A stretch of 64,000 nt of DNA from Myxococcota bacterium (GTDB lineage Bacteria; Myxococcota_A; Bradymonadia; UBA7976; UBA1532): contig CAUJDF010000044.1 in assembly GCA_963169045.1 (NCBI GenBank), forward strand, positions 496,001-560,000, written 5' to 3'. Below are positions 799 to 63,870 of the stretch, in pieces; positions within the stretch are counted from its first letter, which is position 1; the number at the start of each line of letters is the position of its first letter. A program made the translations under genes and the position numbers. Under the pieces are notes generated by a model. The model was given only the letters and a program-made list of their open reading frames with translations. It did no database searches and had not been told where the DNA came from.

Positions 799-1803
799 AT
801 GAGCTCGCGCCCCGACCCAAACGCGATCGTCGCGCTCGCGACCGCCTACTGGGGGAGTGCCACGCTGATCGCGGCGGTGCGCCTCAAGCTGTTCACCCAC
901 CTCGCCGCCGGGGCCGCGTCGCCGGCGGAGGTCGCGGCGCGCGCCGGCACCGATCCGGTGGCCACCGACGCGCTGCTGACGGCCCTGGCCAGCGTCGGCC
1001 TCGTCCGCAAGGAGGGCGAGCGCTACACGAACGCCGCCGACGCCGACCTCTTCCTGGTGGAGGGCCGCCCGTCGTACCTCGGGCCGGCGCTCCTCTACAA
1101 CGGCGACGTCTACCCGCTGTGGAACCGGCTGGACGAGGTCGTGCGGACGGGCACGGTGCACGCTTCGCCCGACCAGTACCTCGGCGAGGACGCGAGCCGG
1201 ACGCGCAACTTCGTCTACGGCATGCACCACCGCGCGCTCGGCGTCGGCCGCGCGCTCGCCGAGGTGGTCGACCTGACCGGCCGTCACCGCCTCGCCGACG
1301 TCGGCGGCGGGCCGGGCACCTACTCGGCCATGCTCGCCCAGCGCACACCGGGCCTCGAGGCCGACGTCCTCGATCTGCCGGGAGTCGTCGCCATCTCGAC
1401 CGAGATCGTCACGCAGATGGGCGCGGCCGATCGCGTGCGCTGCCTGCCCTTCGACTACTACCGCGACGCGCTCCCGGGCCAGTACGACGCGGCGCTCATC
1501 TCGGGGGTGCTCCACCGGGAACAGCCTCCTCAAGTGCTTGAAATCATGAAGAAAGTCGCGGACGCCGTCCCCCCCGGCGGCGTGCTGTACATCAGCGACG
1601 TCATGCTCGACGACGACCGCGCCGGCCCGCAGTTCGCCGCCATGTTCGCGCTGAACATGCGCGTGCTCGCGCACGACGGCCGCTGCCACTCGGTGGCGGA
1701 GCAGCGCGAGTGGCTCGATGCGGTCGGCTTCACCGTCACCGACGTGCGCCACCTGCCGCCGCCGATCCACTACACCGTCATCCGCGCGGAGCGTCGCTCA
1801 TGA
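799..1803 (+). CDS. SAM-dependent O-methyltransferase-like protein
   Basis: 334 aa. The N-terminal 90 residues look like the winged-helix dimerisation domain of the acetylserotonin/plant O-methyltransferase family (LKLFTHLAAGAASPAEVAARAG, then VGLVRKEGERYTNA). The Rossmann SAM site follows, with motif I LADVGGGPGTYS near residue 172 and a later GGVLYISDVMLDDD acidic strand. Family members transfer a methyl group from SAM to hydroxyls of small molecules; the substrate here cannot be read. The ATG at 799 has GGAG 8-9 nt upstream. Its stop overlaps the next start as ATGA, so it is probably co-translated with the lipoprotein gene. The usual general-base HD pair is not obvious (GVLHREQ instead), so the acceptor chemistry is uncertain. 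Confidence 0.8.
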   Translation: MSSRPDPNAIVALATAYWGSATLIAAVRLKLFTHLAAGAASPAEVAARAGTDPVATDALLTALASVGLVRKEGERYTNAADADLFLVEGRPSYLGPALLYNGDVYPLWNRLDEVVRTGTVHASPDQYLGEDASRTRNFVYGMHHRALGVGRALAEVVDLTGRHRLADVGGGPGTYSAMLAQRTPGLEADVLDLPGVVAISTEIVTQMGAADRVRCLPFDYYRDALPGQYDAALISGVLHREQPPQVLEIMKKVADAVPPGGVLYISDVMLDDDRAGPQFAAMFALNMRVLAHDGRCHSVAEQREWLDAVGFTVTDVRHLPPPIHYTVIRAERRS

Positions 1804-2666
1804 GGCGCGCGTCCGGCATCTTCGTCCTCGCGCTCTCGCTTGGCGCCTGCACGTCCGAGGAGGCGAAGAAGGCGCCCACCGCGGCGGCGTCATCGGCGGC
1901 GTCGCCCGCCAGCACGGCCGCGCCCCCATCGGTGGCGGCGAAGAAGCCGAAGATCGAGCTGCCGCCGCCTTCGTTGCCGCCTCCGGGCGCGGAGCCGCCG
2001 CCGGCGCCGCCGACGATCGAGCGCATCGACGAGCACCGCGCCCGCATCGGGCAGGTCCTCGTCGACCGCCAGAGGCGGCGCGTCGAGGTGCCCGGGCGGC
2101 TCAACATGACCGAGGGCATCCTCGAGTACTACGCCGTGGGTCCCAACGGGAAGCTGCACGAGTCGGTGCTCGAGCTTTCCGGCGTGCCCAGCCACCTGCA
2201 CGTGGGGCTGTTGCTGATCGGCCTCGATCCGAACACCTACCGCGACACGTCGACGGGCATGCGCGAGGTGGTCAAGCCCGGCGGACGCATGCGCCTGTTC
2301 GTCGAGTGGACGGATCCCAAGTCGGGCAAGCACCGCCGCGAGCCCGCCGAGAGCTGGCTCTATAACCGTGAGCGCAAGAAGGCGCCGCCCGCGGGGGACT
2401 GGCAGTTCCTGGGCAGCAGCTTCTGGAACGGCCGCTACTCCGCCGACGACGGCCGCAGCATCGTGGCGCTCATCCCCGACGAGTCGTGCGTGGTGGGCGT
2501 CGTCGGCGATGCCGGCAACCCGTACCGCGGCGCCACGATGGGCTACGAGGTGAACACCAAGGTCGTGCCGCCGCTCCACACGCCGCTGACGCTCGCGTTC
2601 GAGGCGGTCGCCGACGCGCCCGCCGCCCCGACCGGCCTCGCCCCCGCCCCGCAAAGCGGGCCCTGA
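1800..2666 (+). CDS. YdjY-like domain lipoprotein
   Basis: 288 aa starting at the ATG that overlaps the upstream stop (ATGA). The first 17 residues form a lipoprotein signal with a lipobox ending LGAC, so the mature protein should be acylated at that Cys. A Pro/Ala-rich low-complexity linker follows to about residue 75. The globular part contains ESVLELSGVPSHLHVGLLLIGL and later GSSFWNGRYSADDGRSIVALIPDESCVV, a pattern I associate with the YdjY-like domain found in planctomycete and deltaproteobacterial envelope proteins. The function of that domain is not known. The gene ends one base before the convergent UbiA gene begins its stop codon. Confidence 0.75.
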   Translation: MRRASGIFVLALSLGACTSEEAKKAPTAAASSAASPASTAAPPSVAAKKPKIELPPPSLPPPGAEPPPAPPTIERIDEHRARIGQVLVDRQRRRVEVPGRLNMTEGILEYYAVGPNGKLHESVLELSGVPSHLHVGLLLIGLDPNTYRDTSTGMREVVKPGGRMRLFVEWTDPKSGKHRREPAESWLYNRERKKAPPAGDWQFLGSSFWNGRYSADDGRSIVALIPDESCVVGVVGDAGNPYRGATMGYEVNTKVVPPLHTPLTLAFEAVADAPAAPTGLAPAPQSGP

Positions 2667-3548
2667 TCAGGTCGCGTAGAACCAGCGTCCGAACAGTCGG
2701 CCGGGCACCAGCAGGCCGATCGCGACGGCCGCGGCCACGAAGCCACCCGCGGCGGCGGCGATGACGCCGTTGACCATCGCGATGCCGAAGATGCCCGCCA
2801 TGACGAGGCCGCGCACGGCGCCGGGCGAAGGCGTGGCGACGGCGCGCATCGCGGGCCGCCACAACCACACCACCGGGACGAGGACGAGCGCCGCGGCCCA
2901 CCGCACCGGGAGCAGGTCGGCGGCGGGCCACAAAGCGGGCAGGAGGGCGAGCGCGACCAGAGCCATCGCGCGCGGCCGGACCTGGGCGCGGGTCGCACCG
3001 GCGGCCTCGTGGCTCGAGACGGCAGTCACCGCGGCGGTGTACGCGAGGGTGCCCGCGGGGATGGCCCAGGCCAGCGGCGCTTCGGGCCAGGCACCGGCGG
3101 CGGCGAGGCCGATGGCCGCGTTGCCGTAGCGGCAGAGGCCCATCGCCGCGGGACCCAGCGGACCGCCCTTGAGCACGGCGTTGTAGAGCCACGTCGCCGT
3201 CGCCGTCCCGACCACGGCGATGACGGCCTCACGCCCCACGAAGGAGGCGATCGCGAGGGCCACGGCCTGGAGCAACAGGACGAGCGCCCATGCGGCGGGC
3301 AACGGGACCCGGCCTGACGGCAGCGGGCGTCCCGGCCGCTCGACGCGGTCGACGCGCAGATCGCAGAGGTCGTTGGCGGCCATGCCCGCGCAGTACAGCG
3401 CGGCGCTGGCGCCAACCAGCGCCGCGACGACGCCCGCGCTCGCGGGGCGGCCGAACGCGCCGGCGATGGCCGCCCCCGCGAGGACATCGGCCGGCGCGGT
3501 GAACACCGCCGGCAGGCGCACCAGTTCGAGGTAGGGCCGCAGGGCCAT
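2667..3548 (-). CDS. UbiA-superfamily prenyltransferase, EboC-like
   Basis: 293 aa with about eight to nine membrane segments. UbiA enzymes transfer a polyprenyl group from its diphosphate to an acceptor, using Mg2+ held by Asp-rich loops. The first loop is visible as NDLCDLRVDRVERPGRPLPSG, with N59, D60, D63 and D67. The second canonical DxxxD loop is not evident. Instead there is YNAVLKGGPLGPAAMGLCRYGN (about residues 160-182), a signature I associate with the EboC-type subgroup. It is the last gene of a three-gene minus-strand cassette, and its ATG overlaps the upstream stop (ATGA). The acceptor is unknown; the adjacent cyclitol synthase suggests a cyclitol, which is inference. Confidence 0.8.
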   Translation of the reverse strand: MALRPYLELVRLPAVFTAPADVLAGAAIAGAFGRPASAGVVAALVGASAALYCAGMAANDLCDLRVDRVERPGRPLPSGRVPLPAAWALVLLLQAVALAIASFVGREAVIAVVGTATATWLYNAVLKGGPLGPAAMGLCRYGNAAIGLAAAGAWPEAPLAWAIPAGTLAYTAAVTAVSSHEAAGATRAQVRPRAMALVALALLPALWPAADLLPVRWAAALVLVPVVWLWRPAMRAVATPSPGAVRGLVMAGIFGIAMVNGVIAAAAGGFVAAAVAIGLLVPGRLFGRWFYAT

Positions 3549-4729
3549 CAGGCCTCTCGGCGGATCCAGGCGAGCAGGTCCTCGTCCTGGCGAACGAGCC
3601 GCTGCTCCTCGGTGCCCATCGGGTCCTTGAAGAAGGAGGAGAGCGACGTCACCACCCCTCGCTCACCGCGGCGCTGCGCGAGCTCGACCAGGCGGACGAG
3701 GTCGATCACCAGCGGCGCGGCCAGGAGCGAGTCGCAGCCGTCCCAGGTGAACTGCATCTGCATGCGGCCGCCCAGGAAGCCCGAAAAGTGGATGTGATCC
3801 CAAGCGATCTTCCACTCGCCGAGGCTCTGGACGAAGTCGATGCCCACCCGCGTCTCGGGCGCGTAACCGAGGATGCGCCGGAGCAGGTGGTCCTTGGTGC
3901 GGATCTTCGAGGCCTTGTTCCGCGGATTCTCGAGGACGCGGCCGTCGTCGTTCCCGAGGATGTTCTGCCCGAACCAGGACAGGACGCGCAGGTTCCGGCG
4001 GGCGAAGAGCTCGCTGAGCACCGACTTCACGAGCGTCTCGCCGGTCTTGCCGTCCTTGCCCATGTGGACCGCGCCGCGGGCCTCGGCCAGCGCGCGCAGC
4101 GCCGGCACGTCGGAGCCGAGGCTCGGCGTGAAGTTCACGTACGCGTCGCCGCCGGAGAGCGCCGCCCAGGCGTAGAGCGCACTGGCCGGCAGCACGGGGG
4201 CCGTGCCGCGGGCGGCCGCCTCGAGGGCCGCGAGGTCGTCCCAGGCCGGCTGCGGATCCATCGGCGGCTCGGTGCTCGCCACGTTGACCATGACGATGCG
4301 GTCGAGGCCCTCGGCCGCCCGGAACGCATCGAGATCGGCGCGAATGCGCGCCATCGCCGCCGCGTCGGTGTCGACGGGCGCCGCGGCGTCGGCCATCGAG
4401 GCCACCGTGTCGCCCGCGCCGCGCACGATCCCCGGCCGGATGTGGCGATCGATCGCCGCGAGGTCCTCGCGCAACGCGTCGGCGAGGTAGGGCACGCGGC
4501 AGCTCTCGAGCACCGCCTTCGCGATGTCCGGCAGGGCGCCCGCGCGCACCTCGTGGCCACCGAAGACGAACGCCTCGGGCGCGGCGAGATCGCTCGCGCC
4601 GAACTCCGGACGCTGGGTGACGAGTCCCGCCAGCGGGGCGATGCCGCGCCGCGCTGCCGCGACGCCGGCCATGACGACCGACGCGATGCTGCCGCGCGCT
4701 CCGATGAGCCACACACCAGTCCGGCGCAC
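3548..4729 (-). CDS. Inositol-3-phosphate synthase family protein
   Basis: 393 aa. The family converts glucose-6-phosphate to myo-inositol-3-phosphate through an NAD-dependent cyclisation. Visible signatures are the N-terminal nucleotide loop VWLIGARGSIAS, then GKDGKTGETLVKSVL, NILGNDDGRVLENP, NKASKIRTKDHLL and CDSLLAAPLVIDLVRL, in the usual order. The lysines of the KTGETLVK and KSKIRTKD-like motifs that act in catalysis are present. The start is placed at the GTG at 4729 because AGAGGA lies 6 nt upstream and longer versions would run into the upstream gene. It overlaps the UbiA start by ATGA and follows the TIM-barrel gene by 25 nt. A related cyclitol product cannot be excluded. Confidence 0.85.
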   Translation of the reverse strand: MRRTGVWLIGARGSIASVVMAGVAAARRGIAPLAGLVTQRPEFGASDLAAPEAFVFGGHEVRAGALPDIAKAVLESCRVPYLADALREDLAAIDRHIRPGIVRGAGDTVASMADAAAPVDTDAAAMARIRADLDAFRAAEGLDRIVMVNVASTEPPMDPQPAWDDLAALEAAARGTAPVLPASALYAWAALSGGDAYVNFTPSLGSDVPALRALAEARGAVHMGKDGKTGETLVKSVLSELFARRNLRVLSWFGQNILGNDDGRVLENPRNKASKIRTKDHLLRRILGYAPETRVGIDFVQSLGEWKIAWDHIHFSGFLGGRMQMQFTWDGCDSLLAAPLVIDLVRLVELAQRRGERGVVTSLSSFFKDPMGTEEQRLVRQDEDLLAWIRREA

Positions 4730-4754
4730 TGGACTTCCTCTCGTCACCGGGGAA

Positions 4755-5624
4755 TCAGGGGATCGGCGGCACCGCCGCCGGACGCTCCGACCGGGCCGCA
4801 CCGAGGCGCGGGGCCAGGTGGGCCAGCGCCCGTCGGGCGGCGTCTTCCGCCCGATCCGCACAAGTATACAGCTCGACCGTCAGGAACCCGTCATACCCCA
4901 CCCGCCGCAGCGCGGCGAACACGCCGTCGAAATCGACGTCGCCCTCGCCGGGCACGAGGTGGTGGTGCTTCCGGCCCCGGATGTCCTCGAGGTGGACGTT
5001 CCAGATGTGGCGCCCCAGGCGCTCGATGCTCGTCACGGGATCCTCGCCCGCACAGACGGCATGACCCACGTCCAGATTGACCCCGAGTGCGGGATGACCC
5101 ACGCGGTCGATGACGGCGGCGGCCTCGTGGGCGCTCTCGACGAGGATGGCCGGCTCGTACTCGATGCCGACGCGGACACCCAGCGTGGCGGCGCGCTCGC
5201 AGACCACGGCGAGGCTGTCGGCGAACCAGCGAAAGCCCTCGGACGGCGGCACGTGCGCCTGCGTCCGGCCGCTGGCGACGCTGACGCAAGGCGCGCCCAC
5301 CGCCGCCGCGAGGTCGAGCGCGGCGAACGTGAAGTCGAGGCGCCGCCGGCGCACGGCGGGATCGCTGTTCGAGAGCGACGGCTCGAAGACCTGCTCGGGC
5401 GGCGGGTGGTCCCACAGGCAGACGGCGGTGTTCGCGTTCACGTTGGAGACGTGGAGGCCTGTGTCCGCCAGCGCGGCGCGGATCGGCTCGACGTCGTCGC
5501 CCGGGCGCCAGTGCGGCGCGTCGGCGAGGATCTCGGCGCCGGCGTAGCCGTGCGCGCCGATGCGCCGCAGCGCCGCCGGCAGATCGACCCGCGTGAATCC
5601 GTTCGTGCTATAGGCGAGCTTCAC
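4755..5624 (-). CDS. Sugar phosphate isomerase/epimerase-like TIM barrel protein, EboE-like
   Basis: 289 aa from a GTG start (weak GGGTGG upstream). The fold is the xylose-isomerase-like TIM barrel of the AP endonuclease 2 superfamily. Metal-site candidates are Glu in GIEYEP (about residue 154), Asp and His in NLDVGHA (about 187-191), His in WNVHLED and Glu in LTVELY. Members isomerise or epimerise sugars and cyclitols, or act on DNA; this one looks like the sugar branch. It is the first gene of the cassette with inositol-phosphate synthase and UbiA, so it may modify the cyclitol before prenyl transfer. That role is inferred only from context. Confidence 0.75.
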   Translation of the reverse strand: MKLAYSTNGFTRVDLPAALRRIGAHGYAGAEILADAPHWRPGDDVEPIRAALADTGLHVSNVNANTAVCLWDHPPPEQVFEPSLSNSDPAVRRRRLDFTFAALDLAAAVGAPCVSVASGRTQAHVPPSEGFRWFADSLAVVCERAATLGVRVGIEYEPAILVESAHEAAAVIDRVGHPALGVNLDVGHAVCAGEDPVTSIERLGRHIWNVHLEDIRGRKHHHLVPGEGDVDFDGVFAALRRVGYDGFLTVELYTCADRAEDAARRALAHLAPRLGAARSERPAAVPPIP

Positions 5625-5667: not shown

Positions 5668-8600
5668 CTACCCATCAACAGCGGCGAGGCCGAGCGCCCG
5701 GCGTGCCTCGAGGCACGCGTCGCCGGCGACGAAGCGCGCGACGTCGGCGGCGCCGGGCACCTCGGCCAGCGGCGCGGCGGCGTCTCGCGCGCTCTTGCGC
5801 AGCGCGTCCAGCGCCGGCACGACGCCGCCGCAGAGCAGGACGCCGATGCGGTTCGCCGTCTCGACGAAGCCCTCGAGCGCCGCAGCGAGATCGAGGTCGG
5901 GCAACAGGTGGCGCAGGTCGGGCAGCACCGTGCCGAGCTTTTGGCGCGCGCGGCGGTCGAGCGTCGCCACGAGCGTGCGGGCGCGTGGTTCGGGCTCGCC
6001 GGGGCCATCGATCGTCACGAGCGCCTCGAGCAGCCCCCGCAGGGCATCCGGCGACCAGGCGACGACGCCGGCGAGGCGGCGGCGCCCCAGGTGGAAGCCA
6101 CGCGCGAGGTGGAAGGTCCGCTCCCCCGCCCCGAGCCGTGACAGCGCCTCCGCCCCGAACACCACCGTCGGCGGTGGGCCGTCGAGCGCCCGCACACCGG
6201 CGCCCAGCGTCAGGTCGCCCTGGACGCGCGCCCCTTCGACGCCCACCAGCCCCGCCACCCGCGCTGCCAGCGCCTCGGTCTCTTCGGAGAGCGACTCGCG
6301 CACCGGCACCGACGGCGGCGCCGCGAACAGCCGCGGCAACGCGCGCGAGACACCGGCCAGCGCGTCGTCGAACATCGGCACCTCGCGCGGGCTGCGCACC
6401 GAGAGGCGCAGCGCCTCGTCGAGCGGCTGCCGCGGCCAGCGACCGACGCGATCGCGCCAGCGCTCGATCACGCGGCGCTCCTCGGGTCCCGCCTCTCGCA
6501 AGGCATGGATCAGCAATGCGATCTGGAACGCGCGATCCGGGCGCCCCGCCGCTTCGTCGAGACGGCGCAGCGCGCGCAGCGGCTCCACCGCGAACGGATC
6601 GCGGTCGAGGAGCCAGCGCACCGCGGCGACCGCGCGATCGAGGCCGTCTTCGAGCGCCTCGCAGGCGCGCGCCAGGAGAGCCCGTGGCGCCGGATCCGAC
6701 GGCGACGCGTCGATGACGTGGCGCACGAGGGCCTCCGCCTCGGCGGCGGCGCCGCGCTCGATCAGCAGCTCCGCGAAGCGCATGCGGAGACGCTGTGCCT
6801 CGACCTCGTCCTTCACCTCGGCGAGCGTCCGCCGCAGCAGGTCGGAGACGGCCTGCGCATCCGGCAGGTGTGCGGCGAGGCGGGTCGCCCCTTCGAGATC
6901 GCCGGGCGCCACCCGCAACAGCGCCGACCACGCATCGGGCTCGTCCCGCAGCTGCGCGAGTCGCCGCAGCAGGCCGGCGCGGGGCTCGAGCGCGACGGCC
7001 CGCTCGAGGCACTCGATCGCGAGGCGCGCGTCGCCGCCGCCCTCCTCAAGCGACGCGCGCCGCGAGAGCGCCTCGACGTCGCCCGGCGCGTCGGCGATCA
7101 CCGCGTCGAGGCAGGCGCGCGCCCGCTCGAGCGATGGCTGCTTGTCGGTGTAGATGGCGGCCAGGCGGTAGCCGACCGCCACGCGCATCGAGCGGTCCGT
7201 CGAGATCTCGCGCAGGCGCTCGTAGACGGTCGCGGCGTCCGCCCAGGCCTCGAGATCGGTGTAGAGGTCGGCGAGGCGCTGCAGCGCGACCGGCGACTGC
7301 ACCGCGAGGCTCGCGACGACGTGTCCCAGCAGCGCGGCGGCCCGCTGCGGATCGTCGAGGCGATCGACACACACCCGCGCCGCCTCCATGCGCAGGTCGG
7401 CCTGAGACGCGGGCAACGCCGACGCGAGCGCCTCGAGGGCGTCGACCAGCGCCTGCCAGCGCCCCGCCCGCTCGCAGAGGCGCCGGAGGGATGCGAGCGC
7501 CTCTTCGTCGGCCGGGTTGCGATGGAGCGCGCGCCGGTAGTCCTCGAGCGCACCGTCGACGTCGCGCAGCCGGTCCTCGCGGACGCGGCCGGCGGCCACC
7601 AGCAGGCCCGAGGCAGCGCTGGCGTCCTCGACGACGCCCCCCTCGCGCTCGGCCATGCGCAGCGCCTCGTCCCCGCGGCCCAGGCCGGCGTAGAGCTCGC
7701 GCAGGCCGCGCACGGCGGGCAGGCTCGTCGGATCGAGGCGCGCCGCCTCCTCGTAGCACAGCACCGCCTCGCGCGGGCGGTCGCTCTCCCGGAACAGATC
7801 ACCGCGGCGCAAGAGAATTCCGACTCGATCTCGCGGTTCGTCGGTGGTCTCGAGCCGGCGTCCGAGCACGTCGACGAGGGCCGCGGTGTCGCCGACGGCG
7901 CCGGCCAGGGCCTCGAGGCGCTCGAGCACCTCGGTGCGCGACGGATCCAGCTCGAGCGCGCGCCGGTATGCCTCGAACGCGCGCGCCGGCGCGTCGAGGT
8001 GCGCCTCGAGCAGTCGCGCCTGCTCCACGAGGTAGTCGGCGCGCGCCGACGGCGACGCGACCGCCTCGGCGAGGCGCCGGTACACCCCGGCCAGCCGGTC
8101 CAGCGAGCGCGTGGTCACCAACATGCGCTCGAGCCCCAGGAGCGCCCCGACGTGCCCCGGGTCGAGCGCGAGGACCGCCTCGTAGGCCTCGATCGCCTCC
8201 ACGGCGATGCCGATGCGCTCACCACACAGGCGGGCGACCTGGAGCCACGCCTCGATCGCCTGCGACGCCGTCGCCGCCGCGCGCGCCATTCGCCGCCACG
8301 CCGCGGCGAGGTCGTGGTCGTCACCGCGCCGCTCGTGCACCGCCACGAGCGCCGCCAGCGCCGGCGTGAAGCCCGGCTGCAGCTCGAGCACGCGCTCGAA
8401 CGCCTCCGTCGCCAGCTCGAGCTGCCCGAGCCGGAACTGGTACAGCTCGCCGAGCCGGTAGAGCAACGCCGCGCGCTCCCGCGGATCGCCGACGCATGTC
8501 GCCTCGACGGCGAGGATCTCGGCTTCGCGCGCCGCATCGCCCCGCCGCGCGAGCGCGTGCCCCAGCGCGCGCAACGTCGGCAGGTGGTCCGGGACGAGCT

Positions 8601-10602
8601 CGAGCGCCCGCTCGAAGGCCTGCACCGCGCCGTCGACGTCGCGCAGGCGGTCGCGCCGGATCACGCCGATGCGGAAGTGCAGCCGCGCCCCCTCGTCGGG
8701 CGACGTCGCCAGCTCGAGCTCGCGCCCGTGCAGCGCGACGAGGCCGGGCCAGTCGCCCTGCGCCGCGAGGAGGCGCCCGAGGCCGCGCAGGGCGGGTCCG
8801 TCGCCGGCGTCGAGCTCGAGCGCGCGCTCGAAGTACCCGCGGGCACGCTCGGGCTCGTCGTCGCACAGCCCGGCGTTGCGCACGAGCAGCGCGACGAGGT
8901 GCGCCTGCTCGCCCCCGAGCTCGATCTCCGCGTCGTTCATCTCGACGAGGGTGGCGCGGTCGCCGCTGCGGGCCGCCAGGCGGGCGATGCTGCGGATCGC
9001 CTCCACGTCGTCGGGCCGGAGCGCCAGCACCTGCCGCCAGAGCGCCATCGCGCGGACCGGCTGCGCCAACCGCGTCGCGACGCACTCGGCGGCGCGCTCG
9101 AGCAGCGTCGCGCGCTGCCGCGGGTTGCGCGCCCGGGCGGCGTCGTCCTCGAGCAGCGACACGTAGCTCTCCCAGTCGCCGAGCTCCTGAAGCACCCGCG
9201 CGAGTGCCCGCGACGCGGGCAGCACACCCGGCTGGAGCTCGACGGCTTCGGCGTAGGCGGCCCGCGCGGCGGCGGCGTCGCCGAGCCGCGTCTCGAGCAG
9301 CTCACCGAGCCGCAGCAGCAGCGCCCCCCGTCGCCGCGGGTCGTCCACGCGCGCCAGCTCGGCGCGATGCATCGCGGCCAGCTCGGCCCAGCGCCCGGCA
9401 CCGTCCAGCAGGCGGCCGAGCCGCTCCAGCGCCGCCGGCCAGGTGGGATCGTCGTCGAGCAGCGCCTGCAGCACCGGCACGACGGCGGTCGCGTCGTCGG
9501 GCAGCAGCTCCGCCTGCCGCCAACGCAGGCCCGCGCGCATCTGCGGGTCGGCCGACAGCGCGACGAGCCGCGAGAGCGTGGCGACCGCCGCCGGGACGTC
9601 CCCACGCCGCTCCTGTAGCTCGGCCAGCATATGCAGCGCCACCGCCGAGCGTGGATCGTCGGCGACCGCCCGCTCCAGGCACTCGGTGGCACCCGCCGCG
9701 TCGCCGAGCTGCTCGAGACGGAGGCGGGCGAGCCCGGCGAAGACCGCCGCGCGATCGGGTCCGGGGGCCTGCCGTTCCGCCAGGTCCTGCCGCAGATCGG
9801 TCAGCTCTCGCCAACGGCCGGCCCGTCGCCAGGCCCGCGCCAGCAGCTCCTGGGCCTCGACGTGGTCCGGCGCTGCCCGCAGCACCGCGCGCAGGAGCGA
9901 CTCGGCCCGTTCGTCGCCGGGCGCCCGTTCGAGCCGCAGCACGGCGGCGTCGATCAGCAGGCCCGCGCGGATCTGCGGGTCCTCCGCGGCCGCCGCGGCG
10001 CGCTCCAGCGCCTCCGCCGCCAGCGAGGCGTCGCCGAGCAGGGTCGCGGCGTGGCCGAGACCGCGGGCCGCCGCCCGGTCCGCCGGCACCAGCTCCAGCG
10101 CCGCGGCGAAGGAGCGCCGCGCCGCGTCCGGCCGATCGAACCGGGTCAGGTACACGTCGCCCTTCTCGACGAGCAGCCGCGCCCGCGCCGCCGCCTCGGG
10201 AACGGTGCGGATCTCGGCGTCGAGCAGGCGGAGCACCATCGCCCACTTGCCGGCCCGCGCGAAGATGCCCCGCGTGGCGCGCAGCGTGGCGACGTGCTGC
10301 GGATCACAGCGGAACGCGCGCTGGTAGTAGGCGATCGCTCGCCGGTCGTCGCGCAGCCGCGTCTCGTAGATCCGCCCCACCTCGAAGCACAGCGCCGCGC
10401 GCCGCCGCGGATCGACGGTGGCCGCGATCTCCCGCTCGTAACCGGCGAGGGTCTCGACGAGACGATCCCACGCCTCCGGCCGGAAGTCCGGCGCGCGAGC
10501 GCGCGGCGGCGCGGTCAGATCTTCGTCGTCCGATCCGGGGCGAGGTGTCAGATCGGCGGAGAACCAGGCGCGATCGATGTCGTCTTCGGGTTTCGCGGCC
10601 AT
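5668..10602 (-). CDS. Giant TPR-repeat protein (1644 aa)
   Basis: Almost the whole length is TPR solenoid, with dozens of roughly 34-residue helix pairs, many of the form ALELDPGDxxALRGLGRLL or RRAALLLRLGELLETRLGD. The mixed repeat pitch resembles the very long TPR proteins of myxobacteria and relatives. There is no signal peptide, and the N-terminus is acidic (MAAKPEDDIDRAWF). The last 300 residues leave the TPR pattern (from about SVRSPREVPMFDDALAG) and form a separate alpha/beta-looking domain that includes GERTFHLARGFHLGRRRLAG. It follows the zinc peptidase-like gene by 52 nt on the same strand. A scaffold role is likely, and no enzymatic motif is intact. The start ATG at 10602 is the first in frame after the upstream gene. 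Confidence 0.85.
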   Translation of the reverse strand: MAAKPEDDIDRAWFSADLTPRPGSDDEDLTAPPRARAPDFRPEAWDRLVETLAGYEREIAATVDPRRRAALCFEVGRIYETRLRDDRRAIAYYQRAFRCDPQHVATLRATRGIFARAGKWAMVLRLLDAEIRTVPEAAARARLLVEKGDVYLTRFDRPDAARRSFAAALELVPADRAAARGLGHAATLLGDASLAAEALERAAAAAEDPQIRAGLLIDAAVLRLERAPGDERAESLLRAVLRAAPDHVEAQELLARAWRRAGRWRELTDLRQDLAERQAPGPDRAAVFAGLARLRLEQLGDAAGATECLERAVADDPRSAVALHMLAELQERRGDVPAAVATLSRLVALSADPQMRAGLRWRQAELLPDDATAVVPVLQALLDDDPTWPAALERLGRLLDGAGRWAELAAMHRAELARVDDPRRRGALLLRLGELLETRLGDAAAARAAYAEAVELQPGVLPASRALARVLQELGDWESYVSLLEDDAARARNPRQRATLLERAAECVATRLAQPVRAMALWRQVLALRPDDVEAIRSIARLAARSGDRATLVEMNDAEIELGGEQAHLVALLVRNAGLCDDEPERARGYFERALELDAGDGPALRGLGRLLAAQGDWPGLVALHGRELELATSPDEGARLHFRIGVIRRDRLRDVDGAVQAFERALELVPDHLPTLRALGHALARRGDAAREAEILAVEATCVGDPRERAALLYRLGELYQFRLGQLELATEAFERVLELQPGFTPALAALVAVHERRGDDHDLAAAWRRMARAAATASQAIEAWLQVARLCGERIGIAVEAIEAYEAVLALDPGHVGALLGLERMLVTTRSLDRLAGVYRRLAEAVASPSARADYLVEQARLLEAHLDAPARAFEAYRRALELDPSRTEVLERLEALAGAVGDTAALVDVLGRRLETTDEPRDRVGILLRRGDLFRESDRPREAVLCYEEAARLDPTSLPAVRGLRELYAGLGRGDEALRMAEREGGVVEDASAASGLLVAAGRVREDRLRDVDGALEDYRRALHRNPADEEALASLRRLCERAGRWQALVDALEALASALPASQADLRMEAARVCVDRLDDPQRAAALLGHVVASLAVQSPVALQRLADLYTDLEAWADAATVYERLREISTDRSMRVAVGYRLAAIYTDKQPSLERARACLDAVIADAPGDVEALSRRASLEEGGGDARLAIECLERAVALEPRAGLLRRLAQLRDEPDAWSALLRVAPGDLEGATRLAAHLPDAQAVSDLLRRTLAEVKDEVEAQRLRMRFAELLIERGAAAEAEALVRHVIDASPSDPAPRALLARACEALEDGLDRAVAAVRWLLDRDPFAVEPLRALRRLDEAAGRPDRAFQIALLIHALREAGPEERRVIERWRDRVGRWPRQPLDEALRLSVRSPREVPMFDDALAGVSRALPRLFAAPPSVPVRESLSEETEALAARVAGLVGVEGARVQGDLTLGAGVRALDGPPPTVVFGAEALSRLGAGERTFHLARGFHLGRRRLAGVVAWSPDALRGLLEALVTIDGPGEPEPRARTLVATLDRRARQKLGTVLPDLRHLLPDLDLAAALEGFVETANRIGVLLCGGVVPALDALRKSARDAAAPLAEVPGAADVARFVAGDACLEARRALGLAAVDG

Positions 10603-62904: not shown

Positions 62905-62982
62905 GCGAAAAACCCCGAGTTGGATTACCCTGCCGCGCGAACACATCCATCAGGCGTCCAGCCGGAGCCGGTCACCCCGCCC

Positions 62983-63870
62983 ATGAACCACCTGCGCGCG
63001 CTGCGCCCCCACCAGTGGATCAAGAACTTCTTCGTCTTCGCGGCGCTCGTCTTCTCGCGGAGGCTCACCGATCCCGATGCGGCGCTGCGCACGCTGGTCG
63101 CCTTCGGGGCGTTCTGCGCGGTCGCCAGCGCCATCTACCTCGTCAACGACGTCGCCGACTACGAGCGCGACCGCGTCCACCCGACGAAGCGGAACCGGCC
63201 CATCGCCAGCGGCGCCATCTCGCGCGGGACGGCGCTGGTCATGGCCGCGCTGCTCGCGCCCCTCGGCGCCGCGGCCGCCTTCTGGCTCAACGTCCCGACG
63301 GGCGTGATCATCAGCTGCTATGGCGTGATCAACCTCACGTACTCGCTCTGGCTGAAGCACGTCGTGCTGCTGGACGTGTTCATCATCGCGCTCGGCTTCC
63401 TCCTGCGCGTGACCGTCGGCGCGGTGTCGATCCCCGTCCCCATCAGCCCGTGGCTGCTCATCTGCACGTTCTTCATCGCCCTGTTCCTGGGCATCTGCAA
63501 GCGGCGGCACGAGCTGGTCACGCTCGGCGAGGACGCGGCGAGCCACCGCGGCATCCTGGCGCACTACAACACGCCCTTCATCGACAAGATGGTCTCGGCG
63601 CTGGCCGGCATGACGGTGATGAGCTACGCGCTGTACACCATCGACCCCCGCGTCGCCGCGCGCCTCGGCACGGACGGCCTGGTGCTGACGGTGCCGTTCG
63701 TGCTGTTCGGGATCTTCCGGTACCTGTACCTCGTGCACCTGCGGCAGAAGGGCGGCTCGCCGACCGAGGTCGTGCTGACGGACCCGGGCATGCAGACGAC
63801 CATCGCCCTCTACCTCGGGCTGACGCTCGTCCTCATCTACTTCAACGTGAACCTCGGCCTGACGGGCTGA
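62983..63870 (+). CDS. Decaprenyl-phosphate phosphoribosyltransferase-like UbiA protein
   Basis: 295 aa, about eight to nine TM helices. The start HLRALRPHQWIKNFFVFAALVFS and the Asp loop NDVADYERDRVHPTKRNRPIASG (N55, D56, D59, D63) identify the DPPR-synthase branch of UbiA. That enzyme transfers phosphoribose to polyprenyl phosphate on the way to decaprenyl-phosphoryl-arabinose. The second loop is seen near GICKRRHELVTLGEDAASHRG. In Gram-negatives related genes occur in polysaccharide loci. The ATG at 62983 lacks a close ribosome site, so the start is uncertain. It is not closely related to the UbiA gene at 2667. Confidence 0.85.
   Translation: MNHLRALRPHQWIKNFFVFAALVFSRRLTDPDAALRTLVAFGAFCAVASAIYLVNDVADYERDRVHPTKRNRPIASGAISRGTALVMAALLAPLGAAAAFWLNVPTGVIISCYGVINLTYSLWLKHVVLLDVFIIALGFLLRVTVGAVSIPVPISPWLLICTFFIALFLGICKRRHELVTLGEDAASHRGILAHYNTPFIDKMVSALAGMTVMSYALYTIDPRVAARLGTDGLVLTVPFVLFGIFRYLYLVHLRQKGGSPTEVVLTDPGMQTTIALYLGLTLVLIYFNVNLGLTG

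What the first reader, a model, noticed from the sequence alone, without database searches (positions are those of the whole stretch)
2667..5624. Cyclitol-prenyl cassette resembling a reduced ebo cluster
A TIM-barrel sugar isomerase, inositol-phosphate synthase and an EboC-like UbiA prenyltransferase are consecutive and coupled. In the known ebo cluster, EboC (UbiA), EboD (sugar phosphate cyclase of the dehydroquinate-synthase type) and EboE (TIM barrel) are combined with EboA, EboB and EboF. Here the cyclase slot is taken by an unrelated enzyme, inositol-phosphate synthase, that also makes a cyclitol. This suggests a route to a prenylated or lipid-linked cyclitol built from non-homologous parts.
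Basis: partly seen in the sequence, partly recalled or inferred. Interest (0 to 1): 0.62.

Follow-up and report, generated by a model that had tools for sequence, protein, structure and literature searches.

The report
Split ebo pathway with inositol-phosphate synthase
Three linked genes in a myxobacterium-like genome belong to a widespread but apparently undescribed version of the 'ebo' pathway, in which an inositol-phosphate synthase and a sugar isomerase stand in for the usual ring-making enzyme next to a membrane prenyltransferase; this hints that the unknown ebo product is a prenylated inositol-like compound.

Summary
On the minus strand a TIM-barrel epimerase (4755-5624), a myo-inositol-phosphate synthase (MIPS, 3548-4729) and an EboC/SCO3242-like UbiA prenyltransferase (2667-3548) are contiguous and coupled. 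The trio recurs far beyond this genome: of 69 named loci found only by UbiA similarity and with full flanks, 55 have MIPS and 63 the TIM beside UbiA. In Actinomycetota and Rokubacteria the usual order is MIPS-UbiA-TIM-EboA-EboB-EboE-EboF. MIPS and a dehydroquinate-synthase-type EboD never occur together, and Conexibacter carries EboD in the MIPS slot and lacks the TIM. The idea that an unrelated cyclase takes EboD's place is therefore well supported. Two corrections: the window TIM is not EboE but a separate family that travels with MIPS, and the ebo set is not reduced but dispersed. This genome holds single copies of EboE, EboA-EboB and EboF on three other contigs. I read it as a MIPS-type ebo variant; I found it in annotated records but in no paper of the library. 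The product, a prenyl (ether) inositol derivative, is inferred and not shown.

The parts
4755..5624 (-). TIM-barrel sugar/inosose epimerase-like protein (289 aa, GTG start); SCO3241-type 'ebo TIM', not EboE
   Evidence: PF01261 150 bits; EboE model only 14.5 bits; it is the only hit in the genome for a profile of actinobacterial/Rokubacterial ebo TIMs (168.6 bits), and in 14 of 15 MIPS-type genomes its best genome-wide hit is the TIM in the ebo cluster (coordinates matched by hand)
3548..4729 (-). myo-inositol-phosphate synthase of the ebo-linked clade (393 aa; GTG 4729, alternative GTG 4747)
   Evidence: PF07994/PF01658; best solved relative A. fulgidus MIPS 1u1i, E 1e-78; the residues aligned with its K274, K278, K306, K367, D332 and N255 are kept and invariant; MIPS tree splits it from the genome's second MIPS with SH-aLRT 100
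2667..3548 (-). EboC/SCO3242-like UbiA intramembrane prenyltransferase (293 aa); NDxxDxxxD motif kept, second DxxxD motif replaced by T-x-x-S-x-x-E
   Evidence: NCBIfam EboC 157.8 / SCO3242 154.3 bits; tree; AlphaFold2 model pLDDT 95; nearest solved fold DGGGP synthase
5668..10602 (-). 1644-aa TPR-repeat protein, upstream and co-directional; probable first gene of the transcription unit, role unknown
   Evidence: Directly upstream of TIM in L014, L018, L019, L020 and directly upstream of UbiA in L021; 43-base gap to TIM; TPR models. Not found outside the family, so not counted as ebo

Best explanation
The trio is one part of a MIPS-type ebo pathway whose remaining genes lie elsewhere in this genome. 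Shown: MIPS and a dedicated TIM-barrel epimerase occupy the place of EboD next to an EboC-type prenyltransferase; EboA-EboB, EboE and EboF are present once each at three other loci; no gene is recognisable as EboD. Inferred: MIPS makes an inositol phosphate from glucose 6-phosphate. The TIM-barrel enzyme, a metal-dependent enolising ketose-epimerase type, re-sets or isomerises the keto form of a sugar or inosose. The UbiA protein, most like the archaeal DGGGP synthase that alkylates an alcohol of a glycerol phosphate, joins a polyprenyl chain to the cyclitol inside the membrane. EboA, EboB, EboE and EboF finish or use the product, by analogy with Nostoc, where ebo genes are needed to move a metabolite into the periplasm.
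For: Recurrent clusters: of 69 full-flank loci chosen only by UbiA similarity, 55 have MIPS and 63 TIM within 5 kb, and 54 have both. Annotated Streptomyces plasmids give MIPS-SCO3242-TIM-EboA-TatD-EboE-phosphatase; Natronococcus has a similar set. MIPS and EboD were never together (0 of 69), and Conexibacter L092 has a DHQS in the MIPS slot and no TIM there. This genome: EboE 365 bits, EboA 128 bits followed by an EboB-like TatD gene, EboF 633 bits. EboA, EboE, EboF and the UbiA are confined to the same order among 38 relatives. MIPS is a separate clade from the genome's housekeeping-like MIPS. Catalytic residues are kept. UbiA is nearest DGGGP synthase by profile (3e-23) and fold (2e-7). TIM fold is nearest to ketose 3-epimerases, with IolI among the hits.
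Against: No product of any ebo pathway is known. A studied EboC-group enzyme, Ubi-297, farnesylated aromatic quinolines in vitro (PMC9235831), not a cyclitol. The window UbiA falls short of both equivalog cut-offs. MIPS makes an alcohol, not the ketone a TIM epimerase needs, so the order of steps is unclear. Some relatives keep UbiA without neighbouring MIPS or TIM (L016, L021, f2 genomes), and five Streptomyces loci keep most ebo genes with no MIPS beside UbiA. Within the order, co-occurrence is not significant on its own.
Confidence: 0.75

Rival explanations
1. The MIPS homologue and the TIM enzyme make a carbocycle other than inositol (as the five-membered-cyclitol-phosphate synthase 6k96 does), so the ebo core is a non-inositol cyclitol that is still prenylated by the UbiA protein.
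For: 6k96, a MIPS-fold enzyme with another product, is among the solved relatives. MIPS is consistently paired with an extra epimerase, as if the substrate or product differed from ordinary inositol. EboD-type clusters, thought to use another sugar phosphate (PMC5133447), do the same job in the same slot.
Against: Sequence similarity to true MIPS is far higher (1u1i E 1e-78 against 6k96 E 9e-11) and all aligned catalytic lysines are kept.
Confidence: 0.2
2. MIPS and TIM are an ordinary inositol-supply pair that happens to share an operon with a prenyltransferase; the UbiA protein works on something unrelated.
For: Inositol synthesis is a common need; UbiA occurs without MIPS/TIM beside it in L016 and L021.
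Against: Adjacency recurs over six or more phyla in different orders. The genome already has a second, distinct MIPS. The same MIPS clade and TIM family sit beside EboA, EboB, EboE and EboF elsewhere.
Confidence: 0.1
3. The UbiA protein prenylates an aromatic or enolised acceptor at carbon, and MIPS/TIM provide an inosose-derived dione or phenol as that acceptor (an IolE-like dehydration).
For: Ubi-297, an EboC-group enzyme, farnesylates 8-hydroxyquinoline-2-carboxylic acid in vitro (PMC9235831). The TIM protein matches the IolE model (60 bits) and IolI. A UbiA farnesylation of a cyclitol-derived ring is reported for BE-40644 (PMC5133447).
Against: No inositol dehydrogenase is in the operon. 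Nearest solved relative is the O-alkylating DGGGP synthase, not an aromatic prenyltransferase.
Confidence: 0.2
4. The cassette makes an archaeal-type ether lipid with an inositol-phosphate head group, unrelated to ebo.
For: UbiA is closest to DGGGP synthase; inositol phosphate is a known lipid head group.
Against: The UbiA protein lies in the EboC/SCO3242 group, far above its score to the geranylgeranylglycerol-phosphate models (158 against 58 and 44 bits). No GGGP synthase or CDP-archaeol gene was seen in the operon (not searched genome-wide).
Confidence: 0.07

Closest known systems
Actinobacterial SCO3241-SCO3243-type cluster (SCO3242 family prenyltransferase; in the CDA region of Streptomyces coelicolor)
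   Same: MIPS, SCO3242-type UbiA and a TIM 'sugar phosphate isomerase' adjacent; MIPS 42-48% and TIM about 30% identical. SCO3242 and SCO3243 are listed as 'putative transferase' and 'myo-inositol phosphate synthase' (PMC3610822). That SCO3241 is the isomerase is from memory.
   Different: There EboA, EboB, EboE and EboF follow in the same operon; here they are on three other contigs. Gene order is TIM-MIPS-UbiA instead of MIPS-UbiA-TIM.
Classical ebo cluster EboA-EboF (eustigmatophyte/bacterial operon; scytonemin-linked in Nostoc punctiforme)
   Same: EboC-group UbiA; EboA, EboB, EboE and EboF homologues in the genome; proposed isoprenoid-cyclitol product (PMC5133447).
   Different: No recognisable EboD; MIPS plus an extra TIM enzyme instead; genes dispersed.
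Archaeal digeranylgeranylglyceryl phosphate synthase (6m31, 7bpu)
   Same: Nearest solved structure to the UbiA protein by profile and fold; prenylates an alcohol of a small phosphorylated polyol (from memory).
   Different: 18% identity; second Asp motif of the UbiA family replaced by a single Glu (E181) in the EboC/SCO3242 group.
Archaeoglobus fulgidus-type myo-inositol-phosphate synthase (1u1i)
   Same: Full-length match; aligned catalytic residues all kept.
   Different: Forms an ebo-linked clade apart from the genome's second MIPS.

Membership tests
Classical ebo cluster (EboABCDEF) | EboC-type UbiA prenyltransferase | tested here: inconclusive
   Best NCBIfam model is EboC (157.8 bits) but the equivalog cut-off is 250; SCO3242 nearly ties (154.3, cut-off 260). 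In the tree it lies inside the EboC/SCO3242 set, with E. coli UbiA and MenA outside.
Classical ebo cluster (EboABCDEF) | EboD, a DHQS-type sugar phosphate cyclase | tested here: not met
   None in the locus. Two DHQS-family genes in the genome: one beside aro genes (AroB), one fused to an NAD-epimerase and no closer to EboD (36%) than to AroB (38%).
Classical ebo cluster (EboABCDEF) | EboE TIM barrel next to EboC | tested here: not met
   Adjacent TIM is not EboE (14.5 bits); true EboE is on another contig, C14, 365 bits.
Classical ebo cluster (EboABCDEF) | EboA, EboB and EboF present in the genome | tested here: met
   EboA C24:543-965; EboB-like TatD directly after it; EboF C62:35115-36467, 633 bits.
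Classical ebo cluster (EboABCDEF) | Genes physically clustered | tested here: not met
   Four separate contigs, C14, C24, C44, C62. Planctomycetes were already noted as unclustered (PMC5133447).
Actinobacterial MIPS-type ebo cluster (SCO3241-3243 type) | MIPS, SCO3242/EboC-group UbiA and ebo TIM adjacent | tested here: met
   Window trio; TIM is the reciprocal best hit; ebo-clade MIPS.
Actinobacterial MIPS-type ebo cluster (SCO3241-3243 type) | EboA-EboB-EboE-EboF downstream | tested here: not met
   Not in the window; present elsewhere in the genome.
Myo-inositol-phosphate synthase | Catalytic residues of A. fulgidus MIPS (K274, K278, K306, K367, D332, N255; roles from memory) | tested here: met
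   Aligned residues kept in window MIPS and invariant in 12 sequences.
Myo-inositol-phosphate synthase | Converts glucose 6-phosphate to inositol phosphate | not testable with these tools
   Needs an enzyme assay.
UbiA superfamily | First Asp motif NDxxDxxxD and all-helical fold | tested here: met
   N59 D60 D63 D67 invariant in 35 sequences; AlphaFold2 model matches UbiA folds.
UbiA superfamily | Second Asp motif DxxxD (from memory) | tested here: not met
   Position taken by T175..E181 in the whole EboC/SCO3242 group sampled.

The most novel reading that the evidence does not exclude
EboD and MIPS plus a dedicated epimerase are interchangeable, non-homologous entries into one pathway, so the unidentified ebo product has a six-membered, inositol-level cyclitol core bearing an ether-linked prenyl chain. 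It would be a prenyl-cyclitol carrier or cofactor made across bacteria and haloarchaea and, in this myxobacterial order, encoded by scattered genes.
Probability: 0.42. Interest if true: 0.75.

Novelty: new variant of a known kind. Interest (0 to 1): 0.57.

Why it matters
The ebo pathway is widespread, is needed for scytonemin export in Nostoc and occurs in algal plastids, yet its product is unknown. If MIPS can fill EboD's place, the chemistry of MIPS narrows down the core of the product and gives a defined starting metabolite (glucose 6-phosphate) and a label (inositol) to look for. Streptomyces with the whole seven-gene operon are tractable hosts, so the question becomes directly testable. 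The dispersed set here also shows that the pathway can be missed by cluster-based searches.

Tried and rejected
Window TIM as EboE: rejected. EboE locus C14 as a second ebo cluster: its neighbours are Uma2, MutY-like and ABC-transporter genes, so EboE stands alone. Extra DHQS of the genome (C3) as EboD: rejected as unproven; it is fused to an NAD-epimerase, beside a ROK kinase, and no nearer EboD than AroB. UbiA as a ubiquinone or menaquinone enzyme: rejected. Plasmid search with the window UbiA found only weak UbiA-family hits; searching with MIPS instead found the Streptomyces clusters. Paper searches for EboE with inositol-3-phosphate synthase, and for MIPS with prenyltransferase and the calcium-dependent antibiotic, gave none; recent Ebo papers added nothing on MIPS.
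Full report
The observation. The finding lies on the minus strand. Three genes read in one direction: a TIM-barrel protein (5624 to 4755), a myo-inositol-phosphate synthase (MIPS) and a UbiA-family prenyltransferase (3548 to 2667). The MIPS stop codon and the UbiA start codon overlap by one base at 3548. The TIM stop is 25 bases before a GTG at 4729 that has a good ribosome-binding site; the first GTG, at 4747, is the alternative. A 1644-residue TPR-repeat protein lies 43 bases upstream in the same direction. A codon model trained on genes supported by homology also calls these frames, although the trio was part of its training set.

What the proteins are. The UbiA protein matches the NCBIfam models EboC (157.8 bits) and SCO3242 (154.3 bits) almost equally, both below the equivalog cut-offs, and the ubiquinone model far less (26 bits). 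The MIPS is full length, is most like the solved Archaeoglobus fulgidus enzyme (E 1e-78), and keeps the residues aligned with its catalytic lysines, aspartate and asparagine. The TIM protein belongs to the xylose-isomerase-like family. It is not EboE: that model gives only 14.5 bits. Its AlphaFold2 model (pLDDT 95) is nearest to metal-dependent ketose 3-epimerases, with IolI further down the list. The UbiA model (pLDDT 95) is nearest to digeranylgeranylglyceryl phosphate synthase, as is its sequence profile. The first aspartate motif of UbiA enzymes is invariant; the second is replaced by a single glutamate throughout the EboC/SCO3242 group sampled.

Conservation in relatives. In four relatives of the family the order TPR-TIM-MIPS-UbiA is kept. 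Two genomes of one genus keep MIPS-UbiA but not the TIM beside it; the one of these that was searched (G008) carries at another locus a TIM that fits the actinobacterial profile much better (345 bits). One relative has MIPS-TIM without UbiA beside it, one has TIM-UbiA without MIPS, and one has TPR followed directly by UbiA. A relative's contig is titled 'uncultured Myxococcales bacterium', which suggests that the window comes from that group.

Conservation beyond. Eighty named loci were fetched by UbiA similarity alone and annotated with profiles built here. Of 69 with at least 3 kb on both sides, 55 have MIPS, 63 the TIM and 54 both within 5 kb on the same strand. In Actinomycetota and Rokubacteria the usual order is MIPS-UbiA-TIM-EboA-EboB-EboE-EboF. 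Planctomycetes have MIPS-TIM-UbiA-TIM. Desulfobacteria have MIPS, TIM-UbiA, EboF and a second TIM. Annotated records show the same in Streptomyces plasmids and in the archaeon Natronococcus. By a rough estimate of mine, chance adjacency of MIPS and a given UbiA is well under 1%. The sample is biased towards relatives of the window UbiA, so the fractions describe that group and not all ebo clusters.

The cyclase slot. No locus with full flanks holds both MIPS and a dehydroquinate-synthase-type cyclase. Colwellia (L051) and a Fibrobacterium (L060) have the DHQS-type gene and no MIPS. Conexibacter (L092), whose UbiA falls among other Actinomycetota in the tree, has a DHQS gene (PF01761, 1e-31) where its relatives have MIPS, then UbiA-EboA-EboB-EboE-EboF, with no TIM in the cluster; its genome's best TIM hit is weaker and covers only part of the query. 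So MIPS plus the TIM, and EboD, look like alternatives in one operon. The TIM is not strictly tied to MIPS: the Fibrobacterium has a weaker TIM match next to its DHQS gene. The 2016 description of ebo reports that in Actinobacteria EboA can be fused to a xylose-isomerase-like domain but contains no mention of inositol (PMC5133447). No paper in the library holds both EboE and inositol-3-phosphate synthase.

The rest of the pathway in this genome. EboE is at C14:159504-160598 with unrelated neighbours. EboA is at C24:543-965, followed at once by an EboB-like TatD gene. EboF is at C62:35115-36467. The only EboC-like gene of real strength is the one in the window. Two DHQS-family genes exist: AroB beside aroE/K and aroC, and one fused to an NAD-epimerase. 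Thus all parts except EboD are present once each, spread over four contigs. Among 38 relatives EboA, EboE, EboF and the UbiA protein are confined to the same order. Over all 38 genomes the association is strong (Fisher p 3e-7 for UbiA with EboE), but this mostly reflects ancestry: inside the order it is not significant. Other members of the order also have scattered genes.

Orthology of the parts. The MIPS tree separates all MIPS genes beside ebo genes, plus a haloarchaeal one, from the genome's second MIPS and two others, with SH-aLRT 100. A profile of actinobacterial and Rokubacterial ebo TIMs finds a single match in this genome, the window TIM. In 14 of 15 MIPS-type genomes the window TIM's best genome-wide match is the TIM in the ebo cluster, and in the fifteenth, Desulfosarcina, it is a close second (coordinates matched by hand). 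The UbiA tree puts window and order in one clade (100/100) inside the EboC/SCO3242 set; the E. coli UbiA and MenA outgroups are on very long branches, so only the coarse placement is used.

How it most likely works. Shown: identity of the parts, their linkage elsewhere, the exchange with EboD, and conserved active sites. Inferred: MIPS makes inositol phosphate; the TIM enzyme adjusts a keto sugar or inosose; the UbiA enzyme attaches a prenyl chain, probably by an ether bond as DGGGP synthase does; the other Ebo proteins complete or use the product. The role in metabolite movement rests on Nostoc deletion mutants (PMC6282210). The in vitro farnesylation of quinolines by Ubi-297 (PMC9235831) is the main reason to keep an aromatic acceptor open.

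Verdict. A real and recurrent system, best filed as a new variant of a known kind (MIPS-type ebo), present in public annotation but apparently not described.

Noticed in passing
window 62920-63870 (+): A second UbiA-family protein, only 37 bits to EboC; by appearance a decaprenyl-phosphate phosphoribosyltransferase-like enzyme, unrelated to the trio.
   Followed up: partly
window 5668-10602 (-): 1644-residue TPR-repeat protein kept directly upstream of the trio in four family genomes (38-46% identity), and directly upstream of UbiA in G010; role unknown.
   Followed up: partly
window 799-1803 (+) and 1932-2666 (+): An O-methyltransferase (BchU/CrtF-like, Methyltransf_2) and a YdjY-domain lipoprotein converge on the UbiA gene; this neighbourhood is kept in six relatives, so a link to the pathway is possible.
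   Followed up: no
L149 785-2914 (-) (genome contig C3:97784-99913): NAD-epimerase fused to a dehydroquinate-synthase-type cyclase, beside a ROK-family kinase: looks like a separate cyclitol pathway.
   Followed up: partly
L092 3497-5971 (Conexibacter): DHQS-type EboD sits in the slot that MIPS fills in other Actinomycetota, with no TIM in the cluster: the clearest single case of exchange.
   Followed up: yes
L073, L094, L112 (Streptomyces): UbiA-TIM-EboA-EboB-EboE-EboF with an amine-oxidase-like flavoprotein upstream and no MIPS in the slot.
   Followed up: partly
L040, L047, L063 (Planctomycetes): Two TIM paralogues flank the UbiA gene; both are the best genome-wide matches of the window TIM in L047 and L063.
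   Followed up: partly
L054, L056, L062 (Herbidospora): Only UbiA-TIM-EboF of the ebo set at the locus; in L054 an oligopeptide ABC transporter gene lies just upstream.
   Followed up: no
L158 (G008 C61:45286-46104): A genome that lost the TIM beside MIPS-UbiA carries at another locus a TIM much closer to the actinobacterial profile (345 bits against about 170 for its relatives), as if acquired to replace it.
   Followed up: partly
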